DNA of 64,000 nt from Luidia sarsii (Eukaryota; Echinodermata; Asteroidea; Paxillosida; Luidiidae): contig OX465118.1 in the NCBI GenBank assembly GCA_949987565.1, forward strand, positions 9,811,223 to 9,875,222. The letters are read 5' to 3'. Both the position numbers and the translations under genes were made by a program. Positions 6,101 through 40,698 of this stretch are shown here, piece by piece. Every line of letters starts with the position of its first letter. The stretch's first letter is position 1. The notes under the pieces are model-generated. The model searched no databases. It saw only the letters and a list, made by a program, of their open reading frames with translations, and had not been told where the DNA came from.

Positions 6101-9100
6101 CCGGGGTTATCTCTCTTAACCCTGCTCCCGAGCAAGGGATCTCAACTTTCCCTAGACATTTCCAAGTTTCCTGCGAATTGTCAGGACATGGCTACTGAGT
6201 TCTGTAGTGTTTTAGACTGGACCTTCTTCCCAGAGAATTTCCCTCCGAATTGTGTTTGGTTGCAGTGTGGGGGAAAAAAGTGATATCAAAAGACACCTTG
6301 GTATGTCAGTTCCAGGTCACAAACCCACAATTCCGTACCTACGCTATGAAAACAAGGTATAGCTGTCATTTTTTCTGTCACGGAATGTCGGAGTTATTCA
6401 TATTATGTATATGTACTAGTGTGTAACTAGTGGTCGGTGCATCTCTGCAGTACAATATTGCAGTCTATAATACCCTCCCCCGTGCCACCTCCTCTGCCGA
6501 TGACAGTGAGTAATGAGGCATCCCTGTCCATCGGACTCCGCAGCGAGTCCAAAGCCGCACTGCTAATGAATGACCTGCCAATCTTGTCGCTAGCGCGCGG
6601 AGATGTCAGCGGGGAGGGGAAAGGGGGGGGGGAATAGAGGTGGATTTTTTTTTCTTCTTCACAAATTGCCTTGTTTTTTTTGTTTTTGTTTTACAAGAAA
6701 CACGATGACAGCGGGATACCATCATTAGTGGCGTGGAGCTTTATTGGACTGGAAAGTCATTACGGGGGGGGGGGTCGACTGATATACTTTTTTCTTTTCT
6801 TGCCGAGATGAAAACCAGTAGTATGTTGTGACCGATGTGCACCCCTTTTGGTGGTGCAAAAATGTGCAGGTGGTGCAGGTGGTGCAGGTGGTGCAGGTGG
6901 TGCGGGTGGTGCGGGTGGTGCGGGTGGTGCGGATGTGCGGGTGGTGCGGTTGGTGCGGGTGGTGCGGATGTGCGGGTGGTGATGTACGTGGTGCGGTAAT
7001 GGTGGACGCATAGGCCTACGGCTATTTTGTATTGCATTGTTGCCTTTTTAAAATTATTATTATTATTTTTTTTTTTCCAGCGTTTTCTAACAAACAAACA
7101 AACAAACAAACCACACCCAAACAGACAAAGGAACAAAAAAGTCAAACAACAGCTACGAATTGCGACAAGGGAGTTGGGTTAAATAACGGTCGAAACGGGT
7201 GCCTAAAACCAACCGGAACTCACCAGAACATTCCTTATGTGGTCAACGGGCGATATACGGTTTGAATTATTTTATTGAACTCTTTCATACTTCACAAATC
7301 TTTACAAATCAAGGTAGGTGGTTGTTCTGCCGTCATAAGCAACTCTTTCATACTTCACAAATCTTTACAAATCAAGGTAGGTGGTTGTTCTGCCGTCATA
7401 AGCCACTTTCTTTCTTTCTTTTTGGATATAAGTATGAAAATGCAGTTTTCAACATTACGTTACATACGTTTGTATGGTTCAGTTTAACTAATAAACAAAC
7501 AAAAAAGCTACCAGTGGTAGTATCTATCTAATGGTAGTCGTTATCAAATGTACATTTAAATTAGACTACTAAGTAAAAAACAAAAACAAAACAACAAATC
7601 AATGTGTATTGATACTAACTTGATGACAAAGCAAAAAGTGAAGCCGGTGCAGTTGTGTTCAGTCTGAAGATGGAACGCGTAATGATCGTCTGCGAGGGTG
7701 ACAGGGCACGTTGAATCGGTGCTAGGTGAGTTGTTACTACAAGTCCGAGTCAAGGGGACATTAGTCTCGATCGAACAAAACAAAGAGGGCTTAATCAGGG
7801 ACCTGCGCGTCATCTATTGGAAAGAACGATGAGGGGGTAATGAGCGACCTGCACGTCTCTATCGAACCAAACAAAGAGGGGGATAATCAGGGACCTACAC
7901 GCCTCTATTGGACAGAACGACGAGGGGTAATGCGCGGCCCGCAAATCTCTCTCGGGCAGGACAAAGAGGGATCTGTGAGTGTCTATCGGACAGAACAAAG
8001 AGGGAATCTAGAAGGCTGAATGTTATTGATGTCGGTTCAATGCCGGCCACGAACAGTGTCAGTAATTTTAATGAAGGTATATTGTCCGATTGACGTATTT
8101 GAGCGCGGTCGTGGAAGTCTTCAAGAGACTTGACTGCTTGCAGTCGGCAACGTACTCATCGTCATCTGTGCATCCATCTAAAAACATCAAACAGGAATCG
8201 GGACCTGCTCATTGTACTCATCCACCTGCTCATGTTGCTCATCGACCTGCTCATTGTACTGGTCCACCTGCTCATTTTGCTCATTCACTTGCTCATTTTG
8301 CTCATTCACGTACTCATTTTGCTCATTTCCTGCTCATTTTGCTCATCTTGCTCATTTCCTGCTCATTTTGCTCATCGACCTGCTCATTTTGCTCTCATAA
8401 AGAAATAGGATTCTCTAATCCTTACCATCTCTAACTTTTTCTTCCGCTTTCATCATGTTGGAACAAGCCGAGAAATTCGGCATGGTGTTTAACCATTACC
8501 CTGTCCAGGGCCTTGTCAACTTCCATGCCTTTATCTAGTTTTTCTTTGAGATCTGCGAGAATAACTTGGTGGGTTTCATTTTCTTCAAGATGCAAGTAAC
8601 TTGACAGGAAATCCTTGTAGTTGTCAAAGAAGATTCTCTTGACTGCCCAGCAGGTTTTCCTATTGGCTTTGTCTTCGGCTTCATCTTCGTCCATACCATT
8701 GTCGATGTACTTCTCGTGTTTCTCATTCCACATATCTTTGGTTGCCTCTTTGGCCTCTTTCAACCAGTCTTGGTAAGCGATATTATCTTCCAATTCAGAG
8801 CTGGACCCATCTTCTTCCGACAAGTCATCGTCAGTTTCTTCCTCTGATTCGTCATCACTCTCCTCCAAATCGTCACCATCATCCTTAGATTCAGTCCCGT
8901 CACCATCAATTGTAGATTCAGTTCCGCTGCTGTCTGTTTCTGAATCCTGACATCTACGCCTTTTAAATCCCGGTTCATAATCTTCTACGTTAGAATTGGC
9001 TGATCGAAATGTTCTTATGTTACGATCATCGTCAATGTCGTCCATTTTCGATTCACCCGCAACGTGTGCATTTTCTTCATGTCTTCGAAGGTTATATCGC

Positions 9101-12100
9101 CGACTAAAGCTTTTGCTGCAGCGATGACAAGCATAGCGTTTTAGCCCAGAAATAGTATTCATGATGTTTACTCGTGGAGTGTCGATCTCCAAATGGGAAG
9201 ACATGTTTAAAATTGGGCAATATATAAATGTCCTGTTTTCTGTCCTCATTCGGGTGAAATGAGCAGAAATGAGCAGAAATGAGCAGAAATGAGCAGAAAT
9301 GAGCAGAAATGAGCACAGACATGAGTAGAAATGAGCAGAAATGAGCAGAAATGAGCACAGACATGAGTAGAAATGAGCAGACATGAGTAGAAATGAGCAG
9401 ACATGAGTAGAAATGAGCAGACATGAGCAGAAATGAGCAGACATGAGTAAAAATGAGCAAAAAATGAGCAAACATGAGCAGACATGAGCACAGACATGAG
9501 CAGACATGAGCACAGACATGAGCAGACATGAGCAGACATGAGCACAGACATGAGTAGACATGAGTAGAAATGAGCAAAATGGGGGAATGCTCGGGGGAAA
9601 ACCCATAAAATAATGGGGAGCGAGAATTTCTCTTTTCCCCGGGCATTCCCCCATTTTACTGATTTCTACTCATGTCTACTCATGTCTGTGCTCATGTCTG
9701 CTCATGTCTGCTCATGTCTGTGCTCATGTCTGCTCATGTCTGCTCATGTCTGCTCATGTCTGTGCTCATGTCTGCTCATGTTTGCTCATTTTTTGCTCAT
9801 TTTTACTCATGTCTGCTCATTTCTGCTCATGTCTGCTCATTTCTACTCATGTCTGCTCATTTCTACTCATGTCTGCTCATTTCTACTCATGTCTGTGCTC
9901 ATTTCTGCTCATTTCTGCTCATTTCTACTCATGTCTGTGCTCATTTCTGCTCATTTCTGCTCATTTCTGCTCATTTCTGCTCATTTCTGCTCATTTCACC
10001 CGAATGAGGACAGAAAACAGGACATTTATATATTGCCCAATTTTAAACATGTCTTCCCATTTGGAGATCGACACTCCACGAGTAAACATCATGAATACTA
10101 TTTCTGGGCTAAAACGCTATGCTTGTCATCGCTGCAGCAAAAGCTTTAGTCGGCGATATAACCTTCGAAGACATGAAGAAAATGCACACGTTGCGGGTGA
10201 ATCGAAAATGGACGACATTGACGATGATCGTAACATAAGAACATTTCGATCAGCCAATTCTAACGTAGAAGATTATGAACCGGGATTTAAAAGGCGTAGA
10301 TGTCAGGATTCAGAAACAGACAGCAGCGGAACTGAATCTACAATTGATGGTGACGGGACTGAATCTAAGGATGATGGTGACGATTTGGAGGAGAGTGATG
10401 ACGAATCAGAGGAAGAAACTGACGATGACTTGTCGGAAGAAGATGGGTCCAGCTCTGAATTGGAAGATAATATCGCTTACCAAGACTGGTTGAAAGAGGC
10501 CAAAGAGGCAACCAAAGATATGTGGAATGAGAAACACGAGAAGTACATCGACAATGGTATGGACGAAGATGAAGCCGAAGACAAAGCCAATAGGAAAACC
10601 TGCTGGGCAGTCAAGAGAATCTTCTTTGACAACTACAAGGATTTCCTGTCAAGTTACTTGCATCTTGAAGAAAATGAAACCCACCAAGTTATTCTCGCAG
10701 ATCTCAAAGAAAAACTAGATAAAGGCATGGAAGTTGACAAGGCCCTGGACAGGGTAATGGTTAAACACCATGCCGAATTTCTCGGCTTGTTCCAACATGA
10801 TGAAAGCGGAAGAAAAAGTTAGAGATGGTAAGGATTAGAGAATCCTATTTCTTTATGAGAGCAAAATGAGCAGGTCGATGAGCAAAATGAGCAGGAAATG
10901 AGCAAGATGAGCAAAATGAGCAGGAAATGAGCAAAATGAGTACGTGAATGAGCAAAATGAGCAAGTGAATGAGCAAAATGAGCAGGTGGACCAGTACAAT
11001 GAGCAGGTCGATGAGCAACATGAGCAGGTGGATGAGTACAATGAGCAGGTCCCGATTCCTGTTTGATGTTTTTAGATGGATGCACAGATGACGATGAGTA
11101 CGTTGCCGACTGCAAGCAGTCAAGTCTCTTGAAGACTTCCACGACCGCGCTCAAATACGTCAATCGGACAATATACCTTCATTAAAATTACTGACACTGT
11201 TCGTGGCCGGCATTGAACCGACATCAATAACATTCAGCCTTCTAGATTCCCTCTTTGTTCTGTCCGATAGACACTCACAGATCCCTCTTTGTCCTGCCCG
11301 AGAGAGATTTGCGGGCCGCGCATTACCCCTCGTCGTTCTGTCCAATAGAGGCGTGTAGGTCCCTGATTATCCCCCTCTTTGTTTGGTTCGATAGAGACGT
11401 GCAGGTCGCTCATTACCCCCTCATCGTTCTTTCCAATAGATGACGCGCAGGTCCCTGATTAAGCCCTCTTTGTTTTGTTCGATCGAGACTAATGTCCCCT
11501 TGACTCGGACTTGTAGTAACAACTCACCTAGCACCGATTCAACGTGCCCTGTCACCCTCGCAGACGATCATTACGCGTTCCATCTTCAGACTGAACACAA
11601 CTGCACCGGCTTCACTTTTTGCTTTGTCATCAAGTTAGTATCAATACACATTGATTTGTTGTTTTGTTTTTGTTTTTTACTTAGTAGTCTAATTTAAATG
11701 TACATTTGATAACGACTACCATTAGATAGATACTACCACTGGTAGCTTTTTTGTTTGTTTATTAGTTAAACTGAACCATACAAACGTATGTAACGTAATG
11801 TTGAAAACTGCATTTTCATACTTATATCCAAAAAGAAAGAAAGAAAGTGGCTTATGACGGCAGAACAACCACCTACCTTGATTTGTAAAGATTTGTGAAG
11901 TATGAAAGAGTTGCTTATGACGGCAGAACAACCACCTACCTTGATTTGTAAAGATTTGTGAAGTATGAAAGAGTTCAATAAAATAATTCAAACCGTATAT
12001 CGCCCGTTGACCACATAAGGAATGTTCTGGTGAGTTCCGGTTGGTTTTAGGCACCCGTTTCGACCGTTATTTAACCCAACTCCCTTGTCGCAATTCGTAG

Positions 12101-13130
12101 CTGTTGTTTGACTTTTTTGTTCCTTTGTCTGTTTGGGTGTGGTTTGTTTGTTTGTTTGTTTGTTAGAAAACGCTGGAAAAAAAAAAATAATAATAATAAT
12201 TTTAAAAAGGCAACAATGCAATACAAAATAGCCGTAGGCCTATGCGTCCACCATTACCGCACCACGTACATCACCACCCGCACATCCGCACCACCCGCAC
12301 CAACCGCACCACCCGCACATCCGCACCACCCGCACCACCCGCACCACCCGCACCACCTGCACCACCTGCACCACCTGCACCACCTGCACATTTTTGCACC
12401 ACCAAAAGGGGTGCACATCGGTCACAACATACTACTAAAACCTCTCCGATTTCCTTAAAGTTCACCGATAAAAGTCATCAGGGGTGTTGCTTTTTTTTTT
12501 GTCTTCTCTCCTCCTCTTCCTCTTCTCTCCTCCTCTTCCCCTTAATAACAAATATTAATTCACAGGTGGGTTTTGTGGTGTGACCTTTCCGTCAGCGGTA
12601 TTAGCTGTGGCTGGAGTAGTGGGGGAGAAGTCAGACCATGAGGCCTGCGTCCTTAAATCTCCCCCTGTCCGGGGGACCCCGCGTGCCGTATCCACGAAGT
12701 CCAGAGATCACCACTCGGTCCGCCAGGCATGACCGCCTATGTACCTATCCCTGTCTGTGCCTCTCCCTGTCTCTGTCTCTCTGTCTATCTCTCAATCTCT
12801 CTTTGTCTCTCTTCATCTCTCTGTCTCTCTGCTTATCTTCATTTGCCTCCCTCCAATCTCTGTCTCTCTGCCTGTCGCTTTCTCTTTCAGTCCTGATGTC
12901 TCTCAGTCTTTGGCCGCCTTTCTCCATCGCCCCATCTTGGTTCTCTGCCTCTCTCTCTCACTTTCCGTGTGTGTGTCTCTCTCTCTCTCCTTCTCTCTCC
13001 CTCTCTCTCTCTCTTTTTCCCTCTCCCTCTCTCTCTCTCTCTCTCTTTCTCCCTCTTCCTCTCTCTCTCTCTCTCTATCTCTATCTCTCCCTCCCTCCCT
13101 CTCTTTCTCTCTCTCTCTTTATTTCTCCCT

Positions 13131-36862: not shown

Positions 36863-37874
36863 CAGTTAAATTTGTCTTTGCCAATTTTTCAAAATTGACT
36901 TTTGAAAGCACGAGCCAGTGATCGTTTGGTAGTCATAATTATGAAACTAAACACGCAGTAGCGTACACAACCAATTCCACTACATAGGGCTTTGTTGTCA
37001 GTTTTCTTATGAAGGGCTATCGTATATGGGCGCCTTGCCGAAGTCAGGCACTTTTCAGTATATGAACCTGCCCTATTTGGGAATTACTTTTGGCACATCT
37101 CACATCAGATACTATACAGTCTTTAGTGTAAGTTTTGTTTAATAATGACATTGTACTCTTTGGGTTGACATCGATAGATTTCAAACAATTATTTTGTATA
37201 TTTGAGTATCAGTTTGCCTCGAGAAAGAGAACAAATAAAGGTTTTTATACATATTCATAAGCATGTTGCAAGCGCTTGCTAAACAACCGCGAGTCCTGTG
37301 TTGCTGTGGCAACGCGGACTCTATCTGAATAATTTTTTTAACACGGCACCTGGGAAAGGGTTTCGGGGAACACCGACCAATGATTTCAAATTGATTGTGA
37401 TCTTATTGCAGCCCACAAATGCATGCCGTATGTTGCCAACACATGATTTAGACCAAAAAAAAAACTCCTTGGCTTAGAAAATCGCCAATTTACGCAATTT
37501 GAAGCAAAAAGCTGTACGATACAATTATTTTGTTTGTTTGCATTATCCATGGGTGTCGGTAACATAACTTGCAATAATCTTATATAATGATTACGTATGA
37601 ATATTCATGAACAACGAGTGATCATGTGACGGAGCTGTACAATACGTGAATGAGAAGTATGAGGGAATAATAAAAACTATAAAAAAAAATGTTTATTCAT
37701 GTTGTAAGCGGCTCACTTTATTTGCCTTGTCTGTCGGGTGGTTTTTCTTTTAGGGTACTAATGTCAGATCGTAAGATTTGTTTTGCATTGAGGTAAATCT
37801 TCTCTTTTTCAGACGAAGAGAAGAGGTACGGTGGTTTTAAAGGGACATGATAGGAACAAAAATAAAGCAAAACA

Positions 37875-39545
37875 ATTTTGTTGAGGGAACAACGAAATTG
37901 TGTTGTGGGAACAACCAATTTTGTTGAGGGAACAACCAATTTTGTTGAGGGAACAACCAATTTTGTTGAGGGAACAACCAATTTTGTTGAGGGAACAACC
38001 AATTTTGTTGAGGGAACAACCAAATTTTGTTGAGGGAACAACCAATTTTGTTTTGGGGGAACAACCAATTTTGTTGAGGGAACAACCAAATTTGTTGAGG
38101 GAACAACCAATTTTGTTGAGGGAACAACCAATTTTGTTGAGGGAACAACCAATTTTGTTGAGGGAACAACCAAATTTTGTTGAGGGAACAACCAAATTTT
38201 GTTGAGGGAACAACCAATTTTGTTGAGGGAACAACCAATTTTGTTGAGGGAACAACCAAATTTTGTTGAGGGAACAACCAAATTTTGTTGAGGGAACAAC
38301 CAATTTTGTTGAGGTAACAACCAATTTTGTTGAGGGAACAACCAAATTTTGTTGAGGGAACAACCAATTTTGTTGAGGGAACAACCAATTTTGTTGAGGG
38401 AACAACCAATTTTGTTGAGGGAACAACCAATTTTGTTGAGGGAACAACCAAATTTTGTTGAGGGAACAACCAATTTTGTTGAGGGAACAACCAATTTTGT
38501 TGAGGGAACAACCAATTTTGTTGAGGGAACAACCAATTTTGTTGAGGGAAAAACCAATTTTGTTGAGGGAACAACCAATTTTGTTGAAGGAACAACCAAT
38601 TTTGTTGAGGGAACAACCAATTTTGTTGAAGGAACAACCAATTTTGTTGAGGGAACAACCAATTTTGTTGAGGGAACAACCAATTTTGTTGAGGGAACAA
38701 CCAATTTTGTTGAGGGAAAAACCAATTTTGTTGAGGGAACAACCAATTTTGTTGAGGGAACAACCAAATTTTGTTGAGGGAACAACCAATTTTGTTGAGG
38801 GAACAACCAATTTTGTTGAGGGAACAACCAATTTTGTTGAGGGAACAACCAATTTTGTTGAGGGAAAAACCAATTTTGTTGAGGGAACAACCAATTTTGT
38901 TGAAGGAACAACCAATTTTGTTGAGGGAACAACCAATTTTGTTGAGGGAACAACGAAATTGTGTTGTGGGAACAACCAATTTTGTTGAGGGAACAACCAA
39001 TTTTGTTGAGGGAACAACCAATTTTGTTGAGGGAAAAACCAATTTTGTTGAGGGAACAACCAATTTTGTTGAGGGAACAACCAATTTTGTTGAGGGAACA
39101 ACCAATTTTGTTGAGGGAACAACCAATTTTGTTGAGGGAACAACCAAATTTTGTTGAGGGAACAACCAATTTTGTTGAGGGAACAACCAATTTTGTTGAG
39201 GGAACAACCAATTTTGTTGAGGGAACAACCAATTTTGTTGAGGGAACAACCAAATTTTGTTGAGGGAACAACCAATTTTGTTGAGGGAACAACCAATTTT
39301 GTTGAGGGAACAACCAAATTTGTTGAGGGAACAACCAATTTTGTTGAGGGAACAACCAATTTTGTTGAGGGAACAACCAAATTTTGTTGAGGGAACAACC
39401 AATTTTGTTGAGGGAACAACCAATTTTGTTGAGGGAACAACCAAATTTTGTTGAGGGAACAACCAAATTTTGTTGAGGGAACAACCAATTTTGTTGAGGG
39501 AACAACCAATTTTGTTGAGGGAACAACCAAATTTTGTTGAGGGCC
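37875..39545. repeat. 21/22-bp self-complementary minisatellite array
   Basis: About 78 tandem copies. Each unit contains TTGTTGAGGGAACAA, whose TTGTT and AACAA arms can pair around GAGGG. Units alternate between 21 and 22 bp by one A. A variant stretch GAAATTGTGTTGTGGGAAC occurs at about 37893 and again at about 38955, hinting at a ~1.06-kb higher-order duplication. The open frames of up to 628 codons on the minus strand and others on the plus strand result from the 21-bp period. Confidence 0.97.
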
Positions 39546-40698
39546 AAGTTCCTGGCCAAGTTCGTAGTTTTTGGTCCGCTCTCCATTCCCGTAATTATCC
39601 TCAAGTCCTTTCACACGGTGTACGTTCCGCTAAAAATGTTCTTTTTCATTATCGATCCTTGCATTCGTAAATAATGAATGAACGTCTTTCTTTGAGCGCC
39701 CGCACGAACCACGTTGCACGCGCACCGGTCAATTGAGTGGTCCTTTCTTCTTGTTTTGGCTGAAAGCAGGCGGAATTTGTGTGTATCGATCCTTCTGGCC
39801 GCCGATTTGTCAATCGGTATATACGAGGTGAGCGCGGACTATTGTGCAGTCCATCGTCACCCCCATCAGGGCGGACAAAAGACCCGGCTTCGCAACATCA
39901 ATTCGCCGTAAACAACTCCAAATAGTGATCCTCATGTTCGGATCGAAGCAATACCGTTATAGTCACTGACCACGTCCCTTCCGTTAAGATTGCCACGCAA
40001 CTGTCTCCCTGCACACTGGAGCCTCCAAATATACCTCGCAGACGCTGGGATGTCGATACCTGCAAGATTTGGCCCGTATAAGCAGGGAACGTAACTGTTC
40101 TTGTTCCAGGGACTCGGACCGATTCTCGCCATGAGACCCACGAAGCTTCGCCAGCCGATTTGGGGACAGGACTGACGGGGGGTGGGTTGCGGTCTGTGAG
40201 AACCACCCCGGAACAAAATAGCCAATAATTCCCCGACTCGTGTAAATCGCCTAATGGTGGCTGAACCGGTTTCCGAGAAGTCTCCGTCGAAGGCGGGTTG
40301 AAACGGCCGTGTCTCGACCGTGGATGGGCGTTTCTCTCCCGGGGCCAACCGGTCTCCCCACCGCCTCCCTCCTCGCGGAGAGCCGCGACGTGCCACCCGC
40401 TCGCATTCGTCGACTTCGGTAATGGACCCTCATTCGTCTCGACCTCTCCTTTCATTGAACCCAAAGCCAACGGCCGAGAACTCGCTCTCAAGGAGGGAAA
40501 ACTTGAAACAGTGAACAAACATTTTGAATCCGAACCGACGTATTAAAGTTTGACACCGACTTTCTGACCAGGTAGATGCCGTCAGTGTGATATTTGAGGT
40601 AAGTTTGTGTCCATCCTTCATGCTTAGGCCTAGCTATTTTGTGTTCTTATTGAGCCGAAGTCAACATTATTGTAGGTTTTGATTTTTGATTCATTATT

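What the first reader, a model, noticed from the sequence alone, without database searches (positions are those of the whole stretch)
6817..12436. A 5.6-kb almost perfect palindrome with Polinton-type ends and a 6-bp target duplication
Seen: two ~2.8-kb arms that mirror each other base for base outside satellites (coordinates sum to 19253), ends AGTAGTATG..CATACTACT, and AAAACC on both sides. Established: Polinton/Maverick elements make 6-bp duplications and start with AG. Inference: this is a non-autonomous Polinton relative in which the terminal repeat has grown to be the whole element, possibly by foldback during protein-primed replication, as in inverted-dimer defective genomes of linear protein-primed viruses. 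I know of no described palindromic class of Polinton.
Basis: partly seen in the sequence, partly recalled or inferred. Interest (0 to 1): 0.93.

Follow-up and report, generated by a model that had tools for sequence, protein, structure and literature searches.

The report
Palindromic hitchhikers of Polinton virus-like transposons
A 5.6-kb piece of animal DNA that reads almost the same on both strands belongs to a mobile family whose two halves are renewed from each other and which probably travels with the enzymes of virus-like Polinton transposons, a kind of element we found no published description of.

Summary
Confirmed and extended. Window 6817-12436 is a 5,620-bp palindrome: 2,696 nt at each end mirror without mismatch, flanked by AAAACC. 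The unnamed 471-Mb genome holds 24 +/- pairs of its end motif; 20 of 22 palindromic or derived copies read at both ends have exact 6-bp duplications. The same ends bound a 17.5-kb Polinton with polB, integrase, ATPase-like, protease and capsid frames and its own duplication.

A second family, its zinc-finger protein ~60% identical, is also palindromic (3 of 3 read, 9.5-9.7 kb, 6-bp duplications); its outer ~380 bp are 95-97% identical to the ends of a different 18.3-kb Polinton.

Outside satellites the two arms of a copy are mostly alike although copies differ. Changes shared between copies lie on both arms 49 times and on one arm 3 times; private changes 28 and 26. Two family-2 copies carry a fold-back junction with a 28-nt loop. 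Best reading: non-autonomous Polinton satellites whose second arm is re-copied from the first through a hairpin; the mechanism is inferred. Nine literature searches listed no such class.

The parts
6811..6816 (.). left copy of 6-bp target duplication AAAACC
12437..12442 (.). right copy of 6-bp target duplication AAAACC
6817..12436 (.). whole palindromic element, 5,620 bp, ends AGTAGTATG...CATACTACT
6817..9616 (+). arm A (2,800 bp, terminus to centre)
9617..12436 (-). arm B (2,820 bp, mirror of arm A)
6817..7527 (+). [quoted passage not shown]
11726..12436 (-). mirror copy of the Polinton-end homology
7368..7452 (-). remnant of the 3' end of polB (matches residues 1239-1264 of the C2 Polinton polB frame)
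11801..11885 (+). mirror copy of the polB 3' remnant
8134..8194 (.). 61-bp remnant (93%) of the start region of the right-end 160-aa Polinton frame
   Evidence: match; frame
11059..11119 (.). mirror copy of that 61-bp remnant
   Evidence: mirror of the match
8431..9204 (-). 257-aa C2H2 zinc-finger + acidic + helical-domain protein gene, arm A copy, read outward from the centre
10049..10822 (+). identical 257-aa zinc-finger gene, arm B copy, read outward from the centre
9256..9581 (.). inner satellite, ~10-bp unit (GAAATGAGCA), arm A; mirrored in arm B
6862..6981 (.). outer GTGCGGGTG satellite, arm A; mirrored in arm B
9572..9661 (.). oriented centre carrying the A/B differences that persist between copies; folds as a stem tipped by two small hairpins (CCCAT..ATGGG at 9602-9617, GAGAATTTCTC at 9622-9632)

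Best explanation
It is a non-autonomous satellite of Polinton/Maverick elements whose genome is an inverted dimer. SHOWN: it is a palindrome; it belongs to a family with the same ends at many sites, nearly all of those read having 6-bp duplications; the same ends bound a Polinton with polB, integrase and capsid frames; a second family repeats this with a second Polinton; changes shared between copies lie on both arms; the central ~45 nt per side keep their asymmetry; two family-2 copies carry a fold-back junction. INFERRED: Polinton polymerase copies it from its ends by protein priming, and Polinton integrase inserts it. Each displaced strand folds at the centre into one long hairpin. Synthesis restarting near the tip (the 3' end folding back on itself, or a nick beside the tip) re-copies one arm from the other outward, so each new copy starts with matching arms while the tip keeps its asymmetry. 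Occasionally the fold-back point shifts and makes a new centre. Likely advantages are small size, two origins, and a strand that is its own template. The zinc-finger protein is a cargo or regulator of unknown role.
For: Palindrome and duplication. Same ends elsewhere: 48 matches to the first 301 bp (capped scoring); 68 sites of the 16-bp end motif with up to 1 mismatch against 13 for the reversed-pattern control, forming 24 +/- pairs. Duplications: 16 of 18 exact 6 bp (one of them, CCCCCC in L014, lies in a C run), a 19th copy, 3 of 3 family-2 copies. Helper 1: C2:5463781-5481281, 17,501 bp, CACACG on both sides; DNA_pol_B_2, rve + Chromo, Peptidase_C5 (E 4e-4, just under its cut-off), a frame with the P-loop GPTGSGKT, and a 446-aa frame with 2,203 homologues, two of the 120 listed being named capsid or major capsid protein. 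Helper 2: ends C23:7217077 and 7235335 at 95-97%, integrase and capsid frames between. Arms together, unique 1.9-kb part: no base mismatch in 7 of the 10 two-arm copies (two of the seven have one small gap), also L038; shared changes 49 both: 3 one, private 28: 26; family 2: 0 of 2,839 and 0 of 2,850 within L043 and L044 against 10 of 2,738 between them. Tip: -41 asymmetry in 10 of 10 canonical copies, -44 in 9 of 10. Fold-back: on one strand L044 matches the L043 centre from 1 to 616 and then returns from 588 to 1 (97%), leaving a 28-nt loop. 41 divergent pairs of the zinc-finger gene within 4 kb, 0 convergent, 0 tandem.
Against: No replication or integration was observed. The arms are not identical throughout: with satellites, the longest arm alignments of the full-length copies run from 93% to 99.4%, most differences lying in satellites. 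Window and L012 share inner 150-nt A and B states that differ from each other by 20 bp, and L011 and L016 show related differences at -94, so homogenisation does not always reach the tip region. In the tree only 7 of 14 two-arm copies form an exclusive A+B pair; window, L012, L011 and L016 fall in groups of identical or nearly identical arms, and L014, L017 and L019 do not pair. L011 has a 7-bp repeat offset by one and L013 none; the C23 Polinton lacks a duplication. None of the 9 other integrase matches of 90% or more has the window family's end motif within 20 kb; the nearest is 22.5 kb away on C19. The palindrome ends are only 92-94.5% identical to the C2 Polinton, so that copy is not the direct source. 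The direction L043 to L044 is inferred; loss of a central unit from an L044-like element could give the L043 form. Among recent copies dN/dS was 0.93-0.94 in 4 of 6 comparisons where it could be computed, 0.23 and 0.31 in two, and five more had only non-synonymous changes. Mismatch repair in a hairpin could give the same pattern as copy-back.
Confidence: 0.7

Rival explanations
1. A Polinton-mobilised palindrome whose arms are kept alike after insertion by gene conversion or cruciform repair in the chromosome, as in sex-chromosome palindromes (recalled).
For: Unique parts of the arms of a copy are nearly identical; some homogenisation in place cannot be excluded for copies such as L022 with 11 private both-arm changes.
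Against: 26 private one-arm changes stand unrepaired (L014 3, L017 5, L019 8, L023 10), while changes shared between insertions are on both arms 49 times and on one arm 3 times; L024 and L019, different insertions that group at 98/93 in the tree, carry 10 and 7 shared both-arm changes; L045 has 7 changes on one arm only.
Confidence: 0.13
2. Every palindrome is formed anew from a one-armed precursor carrying the central hairpin; there is no palindromic lineage.
For: L044 and L045 suggest that a new fold-back centre can form; one-armed pieces L026 and L027 exist.
Against: Ten copies share one oriented centre with the same A/B asymmetries; L026 stops inside the loop and L027 shows no second end within its 7-kb locus, so both look broken; no two-ended one-armed element was seen among the loci read.
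Confidence: 0.11
3. An ordinary long-TIR (foldback/Galileo-like) transposon of another superfamily that resembles Polintons at its tips.
For: Long terminal inverted repeats with varied structure are typical of Galileo, which resembles Foldback elements (PMC4168063, passages read).
Against: 6-bp not 7-8-bp duplications; (AGT)2//(ACT)2 ends as reported for vertebrate Mavericks (PMC8097293, passage read); 92-97% end identity to two Polintons; polB remnant in the arm.
Confidence: 0.03
4. Assembly or fold-back read artefact.
For: Fold-back artefacts are known in long reads (PMC12870357, search listing only).
Against: Mirror symmetry stops exactly at the element ends; the flanks differ; duplications border 20 of 22 copies; several derived forms are asymmetric; single-arm differences are resolved in several copies.
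Confidence: 0.02

Closest known systems
Polinton/Maverick elements (vertebrate Mavericks, PMC8097293, passages read)
   Same: (AGT)2//(ACT)2 ends, 6-bp duplications, terminal sequence shared with a polB/integrase/capsid-bearing Polinton in the same genome
   Different: 5.6 or 9.5-9.7 kb, no polymerase, integrase or capsid gene found; palindromic over the whole length; carries a zinc-finger gene in both arms
Foldback and Galileo elements (PMC4168063, passages read; PMC3573991, listing only)
   Same: long inverted repeats that are internally repetitive, many non-autonomous copies of varied size
   Different: Galileo is of the P superfamily with 7-8-bp duplications; here Polinton ends, 6-bp duplications, a gene in each arm, and arms whose shared changes lie on both sides
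AAV snapback genomes in defective interfering particles (PMC8235507, passages read)
   Same: self-complementary inverted dimer of one genome part that replicates with helper functions; in one type the promoters stand head-to-head at the centre
   Different: those are by-products in populations of a single-stranded DNA virus; here an inherited family integrated at many genomic sites and tied to Polintons
Palindromic defective adenovirus genomes and transpovirons (recalled, from no call)
   Same: parasites or by-products of linear DNA replication with terminal repeats
   Different: recalled only; not compared here

Membership tests
Polinton/Maverick | 6-bp target duplications | tested here: met
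   16 of 18, a 19th copy, 3 of 3 in family 2
Polinton/Maverick | terminal inverted repeats starting (AGT)2 and ending (ACT)2 | tested here: met
   motif reported for vertebrate Mavericks in PMC8097293 (passage read)
Polinton/Maverick | encodes protein-primed polB and retroviral-type integrase | tested here: not met
   in the window element only a polB 3' remnant and no integrase match; no match of either to the family-2 loci; hence a non-autonomous derivative, not an autonomous Polinton
Polinton/Maverick | encodes capsid proteins | tested here: not met
   no capsid-frame match in the window element or the family-2 palindromes
Non-autonomous Polinton derivative | ends shared with an autonomous-type Polinton in the same genome | tested here: met
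   C2 Polinton 92-94.5%; C23 Polinton 95-97% for family 2
Non-autonomous Polinton derivative | mobilised by Polinton integrase and polymerase | not testable with these tools
   inferred from ends and duplications
Galileo (P superfamily) | 7-8-bp target duplications and P-type transposase | tested here: not met
   6-bp duplications; the 257-aa protein matches only zinc-finger families in Pfam, all below the curated cut-offs
Snapback (copy-back) genome | inverted dimer joined by a loop, explicable by the 3' end returning on its own strand | tested here: met
   L044 junction 616 to 588 with a 28-nt loop; the window family's own centre folds as a tipped stem but its origin junction was not found
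Snapback (copy-back) genome | produced during helper-supported replication | not testable with these tools
   no replication data

The most novel reading that the evidence does not exclude
Palindromic satellites are a stable class of mobile element: heritable inverted-dimer genomes that parasitise protein-primed Polintons, each family matched to its own helper, and propagate by a hairpin cycle in which one half of the genome rewrites the other at transposition, erasing one-sided mutations.
Probability: 0.5. Interest if true: 0.93.

Novelty: new variant of a known kind. Interest (0 to 1): 0.88.

Why it matters
As far as I recall, Polinton replication has not been watched directly; these elements would be fossils of it. 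Arms that change together, a tip that does not, and fold-back junctions give testable marks of strand displacement and hairpin intermediates in protein-primed replication inside animal cells. If the reading holds, snap-back genomes, known as by-products of viruses, have become inherited genomic parasites with a gene of their own, now seen as two diverged families in one genome, each with the ends of a different Polinton. Whether the two arose separately or descend from one palindromic ancestor is open. They also show how multi-kilobase palindromes can be made and tolerated in a chromosome.

Tried and rejected
Assembly or fold-back artefact: disfavoured (flanks, duplications, asymmetric derivatives). 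Gene conversion in place: disfavoured by the 49:3 versus 28:26 contrast. Polinton gene as source of the zinc-finger protein: the C2 Polinton has a 274-aa C2H2 frame, but the match is to finger motifs only. The rve match near the C10 relic looks like a Gypsy-type retrotransposon frame, not a Polinton (my reading of the frame). Zinc-finger function: AlphaFold model mean pLDDT 62, with 10-residue blocks of 71-96 from about residue 141 to 250; no match with E below 0.001 in PDB or BFVD; PHROGs gave only weak hits. No relative of the zinc-finger protein or the capsid frame was found in IMG/VR. Pfam and PDB gave nothing for the capsid frame; the ATPase is my reading of a P-loop, with weak PHROGs matches only. 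Rfam on the window: nothing at gathering scores. dN/dS among copies: inconclusive. Host name: given by no tool; the nearest named capsid homologue is from the sea star Patiria miniata, 80%, followed by sea cucumbers and sea urchins, so perhaps a sea star. I kept the C2 Polinton in separate pieces and built no genome consensus. L026, L027, L031 and L033 have no second end in what I read and are in no duplication count. Rows dropped before counts: one search used 34 arms or pieces, leaving out arms with less than 900 bp of the unique part; one search used 14 copies with both arms; one search used the 150 listed of 152 matches.
Full report
What is there. Window 6817-12436 is a 5,620-bp palindrome. 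Its two ends mirror without a mismatch for 2,696 nt; in the middle the halves differ by a 20-bp satellite step about 126 nt from the centre and by point and small length differences within 44 nt of it. AAAACC flanks both ends. Outside the element the longest inverted repeat in the window is 157 nt at 94%. Each arm carries, from the tip inward: a Polinton end (arm 1-711) that includes a remnant of the 3' end of polB, a 46/91-bp satellite, a 61-bp remnant of a right-end Polinton frame, a 21/42-bp satellite, a 257-aa zinc-finger gene read outward from the centre, and a 10-bp satellite.

It is a mobile family. The 16-bp end motif with up to one mismatch occurs 68 times against 13 for the reversed-pattern control and forms 24 +/- pairs: 22 are under 17 kb apart (21 of 1.2-6.2 kb and one of 16.9 kb), one is the 17.5-kb Polinton, and one is a copy interrupted by a run of N. 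Not all of these pairs were read. Of 18 palindromic or derived copies read at both ends, 16 have exact 6-bp direct repeats (in L014 within a run of C); L011 has a 7-bp repeat offset by one and L013 has none. A 19th copy has AGCTAC on both sides. Of these 19, 12 keep both long arms and seven have lost much of one arm or of the centre.

Its likely helper. The end pair C2:5463781-5481281 (17,501 bp, with a nested insertion in the left repeat) encloses a polB frame of 1,264 aa, an integrase with rve and Chromo domains, an adenovirus-type protease match (E 4e-4, just under the curated cut-off), a frame with the P-loop GPTGSGKT, a PC4/WW frame, and a 446-aa capsid frame. The capsid frame has 2,203 homologues; of the 120 listed, one is named capsid protein and one major capsid protein, while many of the other named ones are called F54H12.2-like; Pfam and PDB gave it no match. 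The element is flanked by CACACG on both sides. Its ends and the palindrome's are 92-94.5% identical. The (AGT)2//(ACT)2 end motif with perfect 6-bp duplications is what PMC8097293 reports for vertebrate Mavericks (passages read).

A second family. A search with the zinc-finger protein gave 152 matches; the 150 listed merge into 147 gene copies with 41 divergent pairs within 4 kb, no convergent and no tandem pairs. Three pairs are only ~60% identical, and all three lie in palindromes, on C3 (9,525 bp), C1 (9,644 bp) and C12 (9,744 bp); 3 of 3 have 6-bp duplications (AATGGA, ATGGTG, AAGACA). Each arm has two zinc-finger copies or parts. The outer ~380 bp of the C3 arm match at 95-97% the two ends of C23:7217077-7235335, between which lie a second integrase type (51% to the first) and a capsid frame (57%). 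That Polinton lacks a target duplication (CCACAA / ACTTCC). By blastn the window family's arm had no match to the two 551-bp end pieces of the C23 Polinton, and the outer 1.07 kb of the C3 arm had one 22-bp match to the C2 Polinton. So two palindromic families go with two Polinton families in one genome; because they share a zinc-finger gene they may have a common ancestor.

How the arms behave. With satellites included, the longest A/B alignments of the full-length copies are 93-99.4% identical. In the 1.9-kb unique part, 7 of 10 two-arm copies have no base mismatch between arms (L012 has 1, L014 3, L017 5), and neither has L038; L018 and L024 have one small gap each. Copies differ from each other by up to about 0.9% from their nearest other copy. 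In the tree, 7 of 14 two-arm copies form an exclusive A+B pair (L013, L018, L022, L023, L024, L036, L038); window, L012, L011 and L016 lie in groups of identical or nearly identical arms; L014, L017 and L019 do not pair; no fork separates A arms from B arms. Among 14 copies with both arms, variants shared by two or more copies are on both arms in 49 carrier copies and on one arm in 3; variants private to a copy are on both arms 28 times and on one arm 26 times. Thus insertions inherit matched arms and one-sided changes pile up afterwards. Family 2 shows the same: 0 of 2,839 and 0 of 2,850 within L043 and L044, 10 of 2,738 between them, and 7 changes on one arm of L045. The two ends of the C2 and C23 Polintons are 96.9% and 95.0% identical; their ages are unknown.

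The tip is different. Ten copies share one oriented centre; the C/T difference at -41 is in 10 of 10 and the G/C difference at -44 in 9 of 10 (L038 has C on both sides); L022, with a slightly altered centre, has matched -44 and -41 but keeps the -25 difference; L023 and L024 have lost part of the tip. The centre folds as a stem with two small hairpins at its tip (-68.9 kcal/mol, z -15.5). Asymmetry further out is also shared in two cases: the inner 150 nt of window and L012 agree arm by arm while A and B differ by 20 bp, and L011 and L016 show related differences at -94. So re-copying seems to begin near the tip at a point that varies.

The fold-back junction. The centre of L044 matches the centre of L043 (97%) from 1 to 588 and then back from 616 to 1; read on the other strand, synthesis passed the old centre, ran on, and returned on itself, leaving a 28-nt loop in an otherwise perfect stem. 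L045 has the same junction plus a further 165-nt rearrangement. This is what a 3' end snapping back on its own strand would leave. The direction, L043 form first, is inferred; loss of a central unit could run the other way.

Mechanism and its limits. I infer that Polinton polymerase and integrase act in trans, that the displaced strand folds into a hairpin, and that synthesis from near the tip renews one arm from the other. Hairpin mismatch repair would look similar. Nothing here observes replication. The zinc-finger protein has 29 homologues (none with an organism name); an alignment of the window protein with 14 of them has 30 invariant columns. Of 37 matched gene copies or pieces in the loci read, 28 are full and intact, 3 full but broken, 6 partial. 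Among recent copies dN/dS was 0.93-0.94 in 4 of 6 computable comparisons and 0.23 and 0.31 in two; five others had only non-synonymous changes, so selection on the protein is not shown. Its role is a guess.

Known or new. Galileo and Foldback elements are the nearest transposons in shape (PMC4168063, passages read), AAV snapback genomes the nearest in structure and presumed origin (PMC8235507, passages read). Nine searches of the open-access library, of which I saw the top rows only, listed no paper on palindromic or non-autonomous Polintons; the direct phrase search returned three papers, all for 'polinton-derived'. Subscription journals, preprints and Repbase were not searched.

Noticed in passing
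G000 C2: Polinton integrase matches are concentrated on one contig: 18 of the 25 best matches lie on C2, which is 31.9 Mb of 471 Mb.
   Followed up: no
L026 (C20:3822000-3828240): One-armed copy whose sequence stops inside the central loop, with a 1.4-kb Polinton right end (160-aa frame 98.75% identical) and internal duplications of arm sequence: a recombinant or a palindrome broken at its tip.
   Followed up: partly
G000 C3:19325242-19342136: A 16.9-kb pair of end motifs (one with a mismatch) with a zinc-finger match inside but no listed integrase match; may be a palindrome with an insertion.
   Followed up: no
G000 C21:14553397-14598519: Three end-motif pairs of 5.05-5.08 kb within 45 kb with the same spacing of the zinc-finger pair; looks like local duplication of one palindrome.
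   Followed up: no
G000 C10:18007321-18008088 and C18:8193742-8194503: Zinc-finger gene copies lying in open frames of 2,067 and 885 codons, far longer than in the other matches.
   Followed up: no
21 of the 41 divergent zinc-finger pairs, e.g. C10:1443900-1446159: Palindrome-like pairs without the window family's 16-bp end motif and not of family 2; perhaps further subfamilies with other Polinton ends. Their letters could not be fetched, so they are not shown to be palindromes.
   Followed up: no
G000 C2:8431319 and C2:8444118: A window-family end motif lies 12.8 kb from an integrase of the second type (52%); possibly a Polinton with exchanged ends.
   Followed up: no
L041:5118-5469 (C2, near 5461469): End of another element 2.3 kb from the C2 Polinton with the same end motif and a 72% polB fragment next to it: perhaps an older relative of the same Polinton group.
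   Followed up: partly
L038 (C2:5717269-5722880): Both arms carry the same zinc-finger frame lengthened by 27 bp in frame (801 against 774 bp) that stays open.
   Followed up: partly
window 37718-39629: Three overlapping long open frames on the - strand (585-630 aa) with weak or implausible Pfam matches; probably repetitive DNA rather than genes.
   Followed up: partly
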